Assembly (NCBI GenBank): GCA_000296795.1
Contig: BAFH01000003.1
Coordinates: 806,401 to 870,400 of the forward strand
DNA from: Candidatus Jettenia caeni
Lineage (GTDB): Bacteria > Planctomycetota > Brocadiia > Brocadiales > Brocadiaceae
DNA length: 64,000 nucleotides
Reading direction: 5' to 3'
A program made the translations under genes and the position numbers. This document shows, piece after piece, positions 14,518 to 19,245 of the stretch; position 1 is the stretch's first letter, and each line of letters starts with the position of its first letter. The notes beneath the pieces are model-generated. The model searched no databases. It was not told where the DNA came from and saw only the letters and a list, made by a program, of their open reading frames with translations.

Positions 14518-14987
14518 CGGTTCCTCAATTGATTTTGTGAAATAAAAGGCATTAAAGAAGATACGTTGTGCAGGGGTGATAGAATAAAATCTGATGTGTT
14601 AAGCACGTATTACATTGTTTATAGAGTTTTATAATCGCTCGTTACCGAGCTATGTTTTAGGGATATTACCTGCCATCACTCATCAGCTACAAAACATTTC
14701 AGGCGCTATTCAACTGGAAAAATGCTATCACATAGCTATCTGTTTTTCAATAAAAAGATTTTGTGTTGACCCGACTGAGGAAGATAAAATATAATCTTCA
14801 AGGTAAAAAGAATGAAATTTTCTTGAAAGGCTTGGGAATCAAAGTAAAATGGTAAGACATAAAAACAGAAAAAATACGTCATAAACCATTGAAACAAGAA
14901 AGTTTGTATTGATTATCTATAATAAGTAAACATTCGGGAATTTTGTTATTGCTAACACTTCCTTTTCTTCTATGAGTAAAATATATT
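14518..14987. other. Divergent intergenic region between exporter and recJ
   Basis: 470 bp, AT-rich and without a credible gene. It must hold promoters for both directions. A good plus-strand candidate is at 14766-14795. Just before recJ there is a tandem ATGAGTAAAATATATT / ATGAGTAAAAG arrangement; the first ATG (14971) gives only a 7-codon ORF overlapping the recJ start, a possible minimal leader. Confidence 0.5.
14766..14795 (+). promoter_or_regulatory. Candidate sigma70 promoter upstream of recJ
   Basis: TTGACC (14766-14771) and TATAAT (14790-14795) are separated by 18 bp. The -10 is a perfect match. It points to recJ, leaving a leader of about 185 nt, or could drive a small RNA in that leader. 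Confidence 0.5.
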
Positions 14988-16721
14988 ATGAGTAAAAGGT
15001 GGATATTTTTTCCCCTCAACAAGGCATTACAGATAGAGATTGCAAGTAAACTTAAAATATCACCTTTGTTGGCACAAGTCCTTATCAATCGTGGGATACT
15101 GGATATTACATCGGCGAGAAACTTTCTCCAGCCGCAAATTGCGGGATTAGGAGATCCTTCTCTCCTTCACGGCATGGAAGAGGCATCTATCCGGATTAAT
15201 AAAGCTGTAAGTAAAGGGGAGAAGATTGTTATCTATGGTGATTACGACGTTGACGGACTAACAGCTACTGCGGTCATGTATCGTTGCCTGAAACTATTAG
15301 GAGCGCAGGTACGTTATTATATCCCTGAAAGGCTGGAAGAGGGGTATGGTCTCAATGCAGATGCCATTAGAAGATTAAAAGAGGATGGAGCTGCTGTTAT
15401 TCTGACAGTAGATTGTGGTATCAATGCCTGCCGTGAGGCAGATCTCGCGCGTGCGTATGGTATTGATCTGATTATTACTGATCACCATCAACCTGGCCAG
15501 GAAATACCTAATGCTTTTGTGGTGATCAATCCGAAATTGGAATCATCTCCGGGCGTCTTCAGAGATCTTTCCGGAGTCGGCATTGCTTTTAAGCTTGCAT
15601 GGGCTATCGGGCAATATTTTTCTCCTCTCAGGAAGGTATCTCCGGAATTCAAAGATTTTCTCCTCAGCGCAATAGGGCTGGTATCATTGGGTACGATTGC
15701 TGATGTAGTGCCGCTGGTGGGTGAAAACCGTATTCTGACAAAATACGGACTTAGCGCATTGCAATATACTGAAATTCCGGGTCTGCGGGCGCTTCTCGAT
15801 ATCGCGGACCTTTCCCATACAAACCTTGATGTCTTTCATGTGGGATACCGGTTGGGACCCCGCCTGAATGCCCCGGGTCGTATAAGTAATGCCGGTATTG
15901 TGGTGGAGATGTTAACTACGGCGTGTAAAGAAAGGGCCGTAGAGATTGCCAATTTTCTGGAACAGGAGAATAAAAGACGGCAAGACATCCAGGTTGATAT
16001 CATGGTATCGGCAAGAAAGAAGGTTATCAATGAAATAAACCTGGATGAAACGAGCGCTATCGTGTTGGCAGACCAGACCTGGCATCCTGGAGTTATAGGA
16101 ATTATTGCCTCGAAAATTGTGGAAGAGTTTAACCGTCCCACGGTAATGATTGCTATTACCGATGATGTGGGTCATGGCTCCGCACGTTCCATCCCGTCAT
16201 TCCATATACTGAAAGCCCTGGAATTTTGTAAGAGTAAGCTGCTTTCGGTAGGGGGTCATGCACAGGCTGCCGGATTAAAGATACATCCTCAACACATCAA
16301 CGAATTTCGTGATATGCTCAACAGCGCGACATCTCAAAGGCTTCACAAGACGGATCTGGTACCCGTCCTGAATATTGATGCAGAAATTACCCTTTCGATG
16401 CTATCGAAGGCATTAGTGACAGAACTTGCGCGTCTGTCCCCCTACGGCGAAGGGAACCCCGCCCCTGTGTTTGCTGCCACAAATTTAAAAATTGTCGGTC
16501 AGCCACGCCGTATTGGTACAAAGGGGCAACATCTGAGCTTTTATGTGAAACAGGAAGATGTTGCTATCAGGGCTGTAGCTTTTGGGATGGGCGGACAAAT
16601 AGACAGGCTGAGACAAAACGGGAGGGCATGTTCTCTTGCCTTCGCCGTAAAAATAAATAATTGGATGGATGGTGATAATCTTGAACTGGAGGTTAAAGAT
16701 ATAAAATTTGATAATGAATAA
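14988..16721 (+). CDS. recJ: RecJ single-stranded-DNA-specific exonuclease
   Basis: 577 residues, the usual length. DHH-family motifs are complete: 'YGDYDVDGLTATAVMY', 'VDCGINA', 'IITDHHQPG', then the DHHA1 part with 'GHGSARSIPSFHILKAL' and 'VGGHAQAAG' and a C-terminal OB-like region. RecJ digests single-stranded DNA 5' to 3' in recombination, mismatch and base-excision repair and uses Mn2+/Mg2+ bound by the Asp/His motifs. The stop TAA shares its last base with the ATG of the next gene, so the two are translationally coupled. Confidence 0.96.
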   Translation: MSKRWIFFPLNKALQIEIASKLKISPLLAQVLINRGILDITSARNFLQPQIAGLGDPSLLHGMEEASIRINKAVSKGEKIVIYGDYDVDGLTATAVMYRCLKLLGAQVRYYIPERLEEGYGLNADAIRRLKEDGAAVILTVDCGINACREADLARAYGIDLIITDHHQPGQEIPNAFVVINPKLESSPGVFRDLSGVGIAFKLAWAIGQYFSPLRKVSPEFKDFLLSAIGLVSLGTIADVVPLVGENRILTKYGLSALQYTEIPGLRALLDIADLSHTNLDVFHVGYRLGPRLNAPGRISNAGIVVEMLTTACKERAVEIANFLEQENKRRQDIQVDIMVSARKKVINEINLDETSAIVLADQTWHPGVIGIIASKIVEEFNRPTVMIAITDDVGHGSARSIPSFHILKALEFCKSKLLSVGGHAQAAGLKIHPQHINEFRDMLNSATSQRLHKTDLVPVLNIDAEITLSMLSKALVTELARLSPYGEGNPAPVFAATNLKIVGQPRRIGTKGQHLSFYVKQEDVAIRAVAFGMGGQIDRLRQNGRACSLAFAVKINNWMDGDNLELEVKDIKFDNE

Positions 16722-17797
16722 TGGACAATATCTGTATTGCAAAAGAGTGGGAGCTTGTTGCTGACCGGATAAAACAAAATGCAAAAACCTGCATCGTTCT
16801 CGGTAGTGTTAATAGTGGCAAAAGCACCTTCTGTAAATTTCTGGTCCGGAAATGGACGGCATCTAAAATGTGCGTTGGGTATGTCGATAGTGATGTAGGG
16901 CAATCCACTTTAGGCCTGCCAACCACGATATCGATGAAGGTTTTTCGTGATCCTCCCCATCCTGATGATTATTCACGTCCGAACGGCTTGCACTTTGTAG
17001 GAAATACTTCGCCGGAAGGTTTTTTGTTACAGACCCTCCATGCATTAAGAATCATGGTGGACACCTGTTTTCAACAGGGTTCGGAAATTGCCCTGATAGA
17101 CACGACGGGTTTTATCGATGGCCCCGTTGCCCGTATTCTGAAATTCTACAAGATAGAAATGCTCAAACCTCAATGGATTATTGCATTACAGGCACAGGGA
17201 GAGATTGAGCATCTTTTGAGAGGATACGAGAGAATGGGCTGGCAGATCATACGGCTTGCAAGTTCAAAGCACGTGATAGTGCGTTCGCAAGCTGAAAGGC
17301 AGAGATACAGAAGCGAAAAATACCGGGCGTATTTCAAACGGGCAAGGGTAATACCGTATCCCGTTACCAAACTTGTATTCCCCTCCTCTATCCTGGGTGT
17401 CGGCCAAAGGGTATATCCTGCTGACATACCAAAAGAAATTCTTGCAAATATTTCTGATTGCTGGTACATGGAAAAGAGCGGATCTGAACTATTAATAGTA
17501 GCAGATCAAGCTGATACGATACTACCGGCAGATAAATTGAAAAAATTTTTTGGAATTGCTACGGTGGTATGTATCAATAAATCTGAATTAAAAGACCTCC
17601 TTGTCGGCTTACATGATAAGAGAAATAATACCCTGGGACTGGGCACAATTGTTGATTTAGACCCTATTACGGAAACATTAACACTCTTTACACCGGTACA
17701 GGATACTCATAAGATAGTAACCGTGCATCTGGGGGCATTAAAAATCGGACAGGGTGGAAATGAAACTGGCAAGATAAAGGTTATTCGCTATGCTTAG
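16721..17797 (+). CDS. CLP1/GRC3-like polynucleotide 5'-kinase
   Basis: 358 residues. The N-terminal P-loop 'VLGSVNSGKSTFCKFLV', followed by 'VGYVDSDVGQSTLGLPTT' and later 'ALIDTTGFIDGPVARILKFYKIEML', is the pattern of the CLP1_P domain found in the eukaryotic/archaeal RNA 5'-OH kinases Clp1 and Grc3/Nol9. A C-terminal beta domain ('GLGTIVDLDPITETLTLFTPV') resembles the Grc3 C-terminal part. Such kinases phosphorylate 5'-OH ends of RNA or DNA. The 1-base overlap with recJ implies joint expression and suggests a DNA- or RNA-end processing partnership. Activity and substrate are inference only. Confidence 0.8.
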   Translation: MDNICIAKEWELVADRIKQNAKTCIVLGSVNSGKSTFCKFLVRKWTASKMCVGYVDSDVGQSTLGLPTTISMKVFRDPPHPDDYSRPNGLHFVGNTSPEGFLLQTLHALRIMVDTCFQQGSEIALIDTTGFIDGPVARILKFYKIEMLKPQWIIALQAQGEIEHLLRGYERMGWQIIRLASSKHVIVRSQAERQRYRSEKYRAYFKRARVIPYPVTKLVFPSSILGVGQRVYPADIPKEILANISDCWYMEKSGSELLIVADQADTILPADKLKKFFGIATVVCINKSELKDLLVGLHDKRNNTLGLGTIVDLDPITETLTLFTPVQDTHKIVTVHLGALKIGQGGNETGKIKVIRYA

Positions 17798-17880
17798 ATT
17801 GGTCAGTGCCCTCTGTATGAGACTGAACATACCGCATTTAACCCTGAAGGAGTGACATCTCAACGCAAATATCCTCTGTC

Positions 17881-17908
17881 ACCCCTTCGGGGTTGAAGGG
17901 CTTTTTTC
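17881..17908 (+). terminator. Candidate terminator after recJ-kinase operon
   Basis: A CCCCTTCGGGG hairpin with a UUCG-type loop is followed by GAAGGGC and a run of six T, about 85 bp after the kinase stop. It is also part of the composite repeat, so it may simply be a repeat hairpin that works as a terminator. Confidence 0.35.
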
Positions 17909-18072
17909 CTGCTTTTTCTATAATCATGACATCCCTACGGGATTAGGTAGAGACGCAAGATTTTGCGTCTCTACAACCGACAAACGCAACATTTTGCGTC
18001 TGTACCATTGCAACATCATGTATCTCGGCGTTTAACGTTGAGAAATTTCAATTCCGTAGGGCAACCCTTTAG

Positions 18073-18179
18073 AGCTTGTGCAAAAAGTCCCAAGCTGGGT
18101 CATATACAGTATTGATCTAAATGAGAAAATACCATATAGTGTATCGTGGCTAAAAATAGTCATACTTCTTGCACAGGCT
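18073..18179. mobile_element. 107-bp MITE with 6-bp target duplication, copy 1
   Basis: Termini AGCTTGTGCAAAAAGT and AGCCTGTGCAAGAAGT (reverse complement of the right end) are flanked by CTTTAG at 18067-18072 and 18180-18185. The third composite copy carries the corresponding uninterrupted sequence (CCCTTTAGAGTTGCC near 44740). The same insertion at the same site is in the inverted composite copy at 34552-34658. It has no ORF. The transposase family that moved it is not recognised. Confidence 0.8.
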
Positions 18180-18718
18180 CTTTAGGGTTGCCATCCCCAT
18201 ACACTATTCAGGCGGGGCGGCAAGGCTAAAGCCTCGCCCTACATCGACACCGTTTTTTCATGAGGAGAGACGGTAAGATTTTACGTCTCTCCTGCCAAAG
18301 ATAGCCTCATGGATGATCTAGGTAACTACAGCGTAAAAGAACAATAACCATTAGATACTATAATCTAAGCCCGAAGGGCTGTCATGATTATAGATAACAC
18401 ACAACCACGAGTACATAACTCCGAAGGGGTGACATAATTATAAACCCCATGAATGAAACTGAACACACCAGCGTGTGTCAGAGCACAATGGTAGAGACGC
18501 AAAATCTTGCGTCTCCAACATCTTGCGTCTCTACCATATGTTGTCTGGTTTTAATCGTTGATCACTATAGCTTTGTTGCAAAAAATCCTTTCCAAATCTG
18601 ATTGCAACAAAAATCCCTCTGCATTCACGAAATTTCTCTTTTCTCAAGGGGGATAAAGGGGAATTACAGAAGATGATATTTCATATCTCCAGGACTTAAA
18701 ATCCCTTAGATCTCCTGA

Positions 18719-18843
18719 TATACACAGCGTCATTAATCAGATACGAATATGTCATTCCCGCGGAAGCGGGAATCCGGAAAAATACTGGAGTCCGGGTCAA
18801 GCCCGGAATGACAGATAGTTGTAAACTTATGTCGCTATGTATA
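18719..18843. repeat. MITE-like palindromic element, copy B
   Basis: 125 bp, the partner of 3039-3183: TATACACAGCGTCAT at the left, a core of GTCATTCCCGCGGAAGCGGG and CCGGGTCAAGCCCGG, and ATGTCGCTATGTATA at the right. It lacks the 22-bp internal stretch of copy A. Confidence 0.7.
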
Positions 18844-18897
18844 GTAATAAAAGTCCTGTCAAACCCTTTCTGAATTTCAACAGAGAATACTGTTTTC

Positions 18898-18967
18898 AAG
18901 GTGTTGGTTTTTACGCCGAAGCCACCAATACTATTTCCAGAAAAGATGAATTCGCTGTCGCTTAATC
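18898..18967 (-). repeat. 70-bp dispersed repeat, inverted relative to 5903-5972
   Basis: 63 of 70 positions match the reverse complement of 5903-5972, including GGTTTTTACGCCGAA and ATACTATTTCCAGAAAAG. It lies 55 bp from copy B of the TATACA element, while the 5903 copy is 2.7 kb from copy A. Confidence 0.65.
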
Positions 18968-19245
18968 AACCCTGCCGAAAACCCGCTTAAATAACATGAA
19001 AATTCCTATACAATGAAATTATAATTGCCATATCTGGCAAATTTTATTATTCTAAGACAGTTTATCGTTATTTTATTATAATGAATAGCTATGGGAGTTT
19101 AAATCAATGAGAAAACAGGTAAAAATTGCAGAAGAGGGAAAGGTAAGGCATTGAGAAATCGCCATCCCTTCAATTTCTCAACACGCTATTTTCTTAACCC
19201 CGATTATGAGCCTCTTGTTGTTTTCTTAAAGGTAAATACTATTTC

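What the first reader, a model, noticed from the sequence alone, without database searches (positions are those of the whole stretch)
14988..17797. RecJ translationally coupled to a CLP1/GRC3-type polynucleotide kinase
The genes overlap by one base. CLP1/GRC3 kinases are known mainly from eukaryotic and archaeal RNA processing, so a bacterial member fused in expression to a 5'-end exonuclease is unusual. A plausible model is that the kinase adjusts 5'-OH ends so that RecJ or a ligase can use them, which would be an undescribed DNA- or RNA-end repair module.
Basis: partly seen in the sequence, partly recalled or inferred. Interest (0 to 1): 0.7.

Follow-up and report, generated by a model that had tools for sequence, protein, structure and literature searches.

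The report
Bacterial Clp1 kinase gene behind recJ
Anammox bacteria of the Brocadiaceae family carry a DNA-repair nuclease gene (recJ) and an RNA/DNA 5'-end kinase gene of the Clp1 family as a tight pair; the kinase looks functional, but the pairing was found in one family only, the kinase has been lost there several times, and similar bacterial kinases are already known.

Summary
recJ (14988-16721) and a Clp1-family gene (16721-17797) share one base, in a Candidatus Jettenia genome. The 358-aa protein is a genuine Clp1-type P-loop protein: Pfam CLP1_P 130 bits; AlphaFold2 model (pLDDT 91) matches human and C. elegans Clp1 over residues 1-344 (Z 27-28). Walker A, DxDxGQ and lid arginines are intact; the clasp Trp is Phe.

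The pairing is not unique to this genome. Of 30 Brocadiaceae genomes with recJ, 24 carry clp1 or its remains directly behind it (16 open, 4 with a stop, frameshift or truncation, 4 short remnants); 6 have none. So it is most likely one ancestral arrangement with repeated loss. Outside the family, none of the 56 regions examined contains recJ; NTPase_1 and DUF72 genes recur instead. clp1 is under purifying selection (dN/dS 0.14-0.28), weaker than recJ (0.04-0.13), and RecJ does not evolve consistently faster after clp1 loss.

A bacterial Clp1 from Thermus was already shown to be a 5'-OH kinase that prefers RNA (PMC6777427). Best reading: a working, dispensable end-healing kinase co-expressed with RecJ. 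A dedicated RecJ-kinase DNA repair module is possible but unsupported beyond the gene pair.

The parts
14988..16721 (+). recJ, single-stranded-DNA-specific 5'-3' exonuclease (577 aa)
   Evidence: TIGR00644 537 bits; residues R115, R292, S398, R400 align with the D. radiodurans 5'-phosphate pocket R109, R280, S371, R373
16721..17797 (+). clp1-family polynucleotide 5'-hydroxyl kinase (358 aa)
   Evidence: PF16575 130 bits; AF2 model pLDDT 90.9; VIA-align Z 28.2 to human Clp1 over residues 1-343
16719..16723 (+). TAATG stop/start overlap of recJ and clp1 (one shared base)
   Evidence: sequence; kept or nearly kept in Brocadiaceae
16802..16828 (+). Walker A of clp1, GSVNSGKST (residues 28-36)
   Evidence: G28, G33 and K34 invariant in 39 bacterial sequences
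17282..17311 (+). lid of clp1, RSQAERQRYR (residues 188-197)
   Evidence: R193 and R197 invariant in 39 sequences; aligns with the lid of human Clp1
14766..14795 (+). promoter-like site upstream of recJ (TTGACC-18-TATAAT)
   Evidence: consensus match only, 11 of 12; such matches are about as common in shuffled sequence
17883..17900 (+). intrinsic-terminator-like hairpin plus T run after clp1
   Evidence: consensus match only; makes a two-gene unit plausible

Best explanation
recJ and clp1 form a two-gene operon. RecJ is an ordinary single-strand DNA 5'-3' exonuclease. The second protein is a working Clp1-type kinase that moves a phosphate from ATP to a 5'-OH end, probably of RNA first and of single-stranded DNA less well, as its Thermus relative does. 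The product is a 5'-monophosphate end, which 5'-monophosphate-dependent nucleases and classical ligases can use and which RtcB cannot join. It is an accessory end-healing enzyme. Its place behind recJ gives it steady co-translation; a shared substrate with RecJ is possible but not required. Shown: gene structure, family, fold, catalytic residues, family-wide conservation with repeated loss, purifying selection. Inferred: operon and coupling, kinase activity, RNA preference, physiological role.
For: Family and fold. Catalytic residues invariant. Purifying selection on clp1 (dN/dS 0.14-0.28). Adjacency across Brocadiaceae. Repeated decay with recJ retained. CLP1 relatives elsewhere sit beside other genes, so recJ is not a general partner. 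Activity of the Thermus relative on RNA over DNA: PMC6777427.
Against: No activity, expression or interaction data. The clasp tryptophan of eukaryotic Clp1 is Phe here, so RNA binding may differ. Long retention of the tight overlap across diverged genera could mean a real functional tie to RecJ. No RNA substrate or RNA-processing partner was identified.
Confidence: 0.55

Rival explanations
1. A DNA 5'-end module: the kinase converts 5'-OH DNA ends to 5'-phosphate so that RecJ's 5'-phosphate pocket can engage them for resection, or DNA ligase can seal them.
For: Conserved gene pair and overlap in Brocadiaceae. RecJ keeps the residues of the 5'-phosphate pocket (PMC4846377). Thermus Clp1 phosphorylates ssDNA at high enzyme (PMC6777427).
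Against: clp1 lost repeatedly while recJ stays. No consistent RecJ rate change after loss compared with UvrA. No recJ beside CLP1 elsewhere. D. radiodurans RecJ was assayed on bought 3'-FAM oligos and the passages read describe no 5' phosphorylation, so 5'-phosphate may not be essential. Characterised Clp1 enzymes prefer RNA.
Confidence: 0.25
2. Chance hitch-hiking: clp1 came to lie behind recJ once, in the Brocadiaceae ancestor, and stays there only because the site gives expression; its function has nothing to do with RecJ's substrates.
For: Pairing found in a single family, clp1 tree monophyletic for it, precise absence in G035 compared with G036, weaker constraint than recJ.
Against: The close contact is kept between genomes whose RecJ proteins are only about 70% identical, while genes downstream changed. 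This rival overlaps with the best explanation and differs mainly in denying any shared substrate.
Confidence: 0.15
3. A Clp1-like ATP-binding scaffold without kinase activity, as in yeast Clp1.
For: Yeast Clp1 is a kinase-dead family member (PMC6777427). The clasp Trp is replaced.
Against: Walker A lysine, D58, Q61 and lid R193 and R197 are invariant in 39 bacterial sequences; the Thermus relative is active.
Confidence: 0.05

Closest known systems
Thermus scotoductus Clp1 (Ts-Clp1, E8PQM6; PMC6777427)
   Same: Bacterial Clp1-family kinase domain with no eukaryotic N-terminal domain; Walker A and Walker B conserved
   Different: Ts-Clp1 is about 27 kDa and described as lacking a C-terminal domain; the Jettenia protein is 358 aa and its C-terminal part aligns with Clp1 structures to residue 344. 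The paper does not mention RecJ.
Human and C. elegans Clp1 (8hmy, 4ohy)
   Same: Fold over residues 1-344, Z 27-28, rmsd 2.9-3.1 A; lid arginines
   Different: No N-terminal domain; 16% identity; clasp Trp replaced by Phe; no tRNA-splicing or mRNA 3'-end context
Grc3/Nol9 with the nuclease Las1
   Same: A Clp1-family kinase paired with a nuclease; fold match Z 18-22
   Different: Las1 is an RNA endonuclease that leaves 5'-OH ends and works in a stable complex (own knowledge); RecJ is a DNA exonuclease that leaves 5'-phosphate, and no complex with Clp1 is known

Membership tests
Clp1/Grc3 polynucleotide kinase family | CLP1_P P-loop domain | tested here: met
   130 bits against cut-off 26.6, residues 28-206
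Clp1/Grc3 polynucleotide kinase family | Walker A GxxxxGK[ST] and Asp/Gln of the Walker B region (DxDxGQ) | tested here: met
   G28, G33, K34, D58, G60, Q61 invariant in 39 sequences
Clp1/Grc3 polynucleotide kinase family | Clasp [T/S/L]xGW (wording of PMC6777427) | tested here: inconclusive
   TTGF in the window: T and G kept, W replaced. F, L, Y or M stands at this place in all 39 bacterial sequences, so it is a lineage-wide variant of the motif and not a loss in this protein; PMC6777427 counts the clasp as conserved in the active Ts-Clp1
Clp1/Grc3 polynucleotide kinase family | Lid RxxxxR | tested here: met
   R188-SQAE-R193; R193 and R197 invariant, aligned with human Clp1
Clp1/Grc3 polynucleotide kinase family | Clp1 fold | tested here: met
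   Foldseek E 5.5e-17 to 4oi0; VIA-align Z 28.2 to 8hmy, next fold family Z about 13
Clp1/Grc3 polynucleotide kinase family | 5'-OH polynucleotide kinase activity | not testable with these tools
   needs an assay
RecJ (single-strand DNA 5'-3' exonuclease) | DHH, DHHA1 and OB domains, score over the equivalog cut-off | tested here: met
Obligate RecJ-kinase module | the two genes gained and lost together | tested here: not met
   recJ retained in genomes that lack clp1 or hold only remnants

The most novel reading that the evidence does not exclude
In Brocadiaceae, the Clp1-type kinase and RecJ form a functional DNA or RNA 5'-end processing pair, an undescribed bacterial kinase-exonuclease system analogous in logic to Las1-Grc3.
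Probability: 0.2. Interest if true: 0.65.

Novelty: new member of a known kind. Interest (0 to 1): 0.36.

Why it matters
Clp1-family kinases are studied mainly in eukaryotic RNA processing, and their role in bacteria is unknown. A clade in which the gene sits in a conserved pair with a well-understood nuclease, and is lost several times, gives natural intact/lost comparisons for testing what bacterial Clp1 does. It also suggests that a bacterial Clp1 can carry a Clp1-like C-terminal region.

Tried and rejected
Searched for recJ beside CLP1 outside Brocadiaceae: none in 40 regions of a second phylum or 16 other regions of the window's phylum. In about nine of the 40 regions my BLAST labelling did not recognise the divergent CLP1 itself, and some regions are cut by contig ends, so a more distant RecJ could be missed. 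Archaeal and Thermus neighbourhoods could not be reached with the tools. Tested whether RecJ speeds up after clp1 loss, with UvrA as control: no consistent effect; G031 could not be included, as only a UvrA paralogue was found there. RtcB presence does not discriminate: all well-completed genomes of the order have it. DUF72 presence is patchy and shows no clear link to clp1 within Brocadiaceae. No plasmid or phage record holds a relative. Rejected GTPase/SRP-type identity: those folds match only the P-loop core at Z 12-13. No paper linking RecJ with Clp1 was found in the library searched.

Full report
What is there. The window lies in a Candidatus Jettenia genome (Brocadiaceae, anammox): the nearest named relative of the kinase is in Ca. 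Jettenia ecosi, 94% identical. recJ runs 14988-16721 and the clp1 gene 16721-17797, both on the + strand, sharing the A of TAATG. The gene upstream of recJ is divergent; downstream of clp1 a terminator-like hairpin is followed by 1.4 kb without an ORF of 100 aa. A two-gene transcription unit is therefore likely, though no transcript data were available. No Shine-Dalgarno-like sequence is near the clp1 start, and the overlap or near-contact recurs in relatives, which fits coupling by re-initiation (inference).

What the proteins are. RecJ passes the equivalog cut-off and keeps the residues of the D. radiodurans 5'-phosphate pocket: R115, R292, S398, R400 for R109, R280, S371, R373 (pocket from PMC4846377). 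The kinase matches CLP1_P with 130 bits. An AlphaFold2 model from 39 bacterial sequences has mean pLDDT 90.9 and matches human and C. elegans Clp1 along residues 1-344 with Z 27-28, Grc3 and Nol9 with Z 18-22, while the next P-loop families (SRP GTPases) reach only about 13 over the core. Walker A, the DxDxGQ stretch and the lid arginines are invariant; the clasp Trp is Phe here and never Trp in the 39 sequences.

How widespread. In the order, the protein search finds a relative in 33 of 62 genomes. In Brocadiaceae, every close relative sits directly behind recJ. Of 30 family genomes with recJ, 16 have an open clp1; four have a premature stop, frameshift or truncation (G019, G022, G024, G036; some may be assembly errors); four hold only short remnants at the right place (G015, G016, G021, G042); and six have none (G012, G013, G025, G031, G034, G035). 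On the recJ tree these states are scattered, with at least seven changes of the 'intact' state forced by well-supported branches (G023 and others are placed there, G024 is not in the tree). The DNA downstream of recJ in G035 aligns from its first base with DNA about 1.25 kb further down in G036, which has a truncated clp1 in between. The CLP1 tree gives one Brocadiaceae clade (100/100), apart from the CLP1 of two other families of the order, although the deep branches are weakly supported. So: most likely one ancestral pairing, inherited vertically and lost several times. G012 carries a different, 41% identical CLP1 elsewhere.

Elsewhere. CLP1_P is over the family cut-off in 62 of 297 genomes of the phylum of a deltaproteobacterial MAG; over 40 of the listed matches span essentially the whole domain, the rest are mostly short P-loop matches. 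In 40 such regions and 16 other regions of the window's phylum, no recJ lies nearby. Recurrent neighbours are instead NTPase_1 (one-base overlap in L105) and DUF72.

Selection. Pairwise dN/dS is 0.14-0.28 for clp1 and 0.04-0.13 for recJ in the same genome pairs: the kinase is constrained, so it probably works, but less so than recJ. RecJ shows no consistent acceleration relative to UvrA in genomes that lost clp1: in G016 and G034 RecJ is faster than the control, in G021, G025 and G035 slower. This gives no support to dependence of RecJ on the kinase, but a small effect would be missed.

Mechanism. Ts-Clp1, a bacterial relative, phosphorylates 5'-OH RNA and, at higher enzyme, ssDNA (PMC6777427). 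The conserved active site makes 5'-OH kinase activity likely here. RecJ leaves 5'-phosphate ends itself, and the passages read on its assays show bought 3'-FAM DNA without mention of 5' phosphorylation (PMC4846377), so RecJ probably does not need a kinase except perhaps for unusual 5'-OH ends. With losses of clp1 tolerated while recJ stays, the safest reading is an accessory end-healing kinase co-expressed with RecJ; a shared DNA-end pathway remains open at about 0.2-0.25.

Novelty. Bacterial Clp1 and its activity are published. What I did not find described is the family-wide recJ-clp1 pair, its several losses, and a Clp1-like C-terminal region in a bacterial member. That makes a new member of a known kind.

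Noticed in passing
L105:5008-6455; also L108, L112, L114: In another family of the order, CLP1 is followed closely by an NTPase_1 (PF03266, THEP1-like) gene, with one-base overlap in L105: a second, different tight pairing of bacterial CLP1.
   Followed up: partly
L109:4807-5526, L111:4685-5416, L116:6368-7102, L161:3785-4510, L163:2822-3535, L164:5611-6342, L166:5621-6352: DUF72 (PF01904) genes lie next to CLP1 in seven loci of different lineages, more widely than recJ does; a possible functional link.
   Followed up: partly
L102:1571-2431: G012, a Brocadiaceae genome without clp1 behind recJ, has a divergent CLP1 (41% identical) on another contig; replacement or contamination.
   Followed up: no
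G000:C3:403347-404654 and G000:C4:628060-629373: The window's genome has two RtcB genes (outside the window); RtcB joins 5'-OH ends that a Clp1 kinase would block.
   Followed up: partly
window 17798-19245: 1.4 kb behind clp1 without a large ORF, with recurring motifs such as GACGCAAGATTTTGCGTCTCTAC that look like a dispersed intergenic repeat.
   Followed up: no
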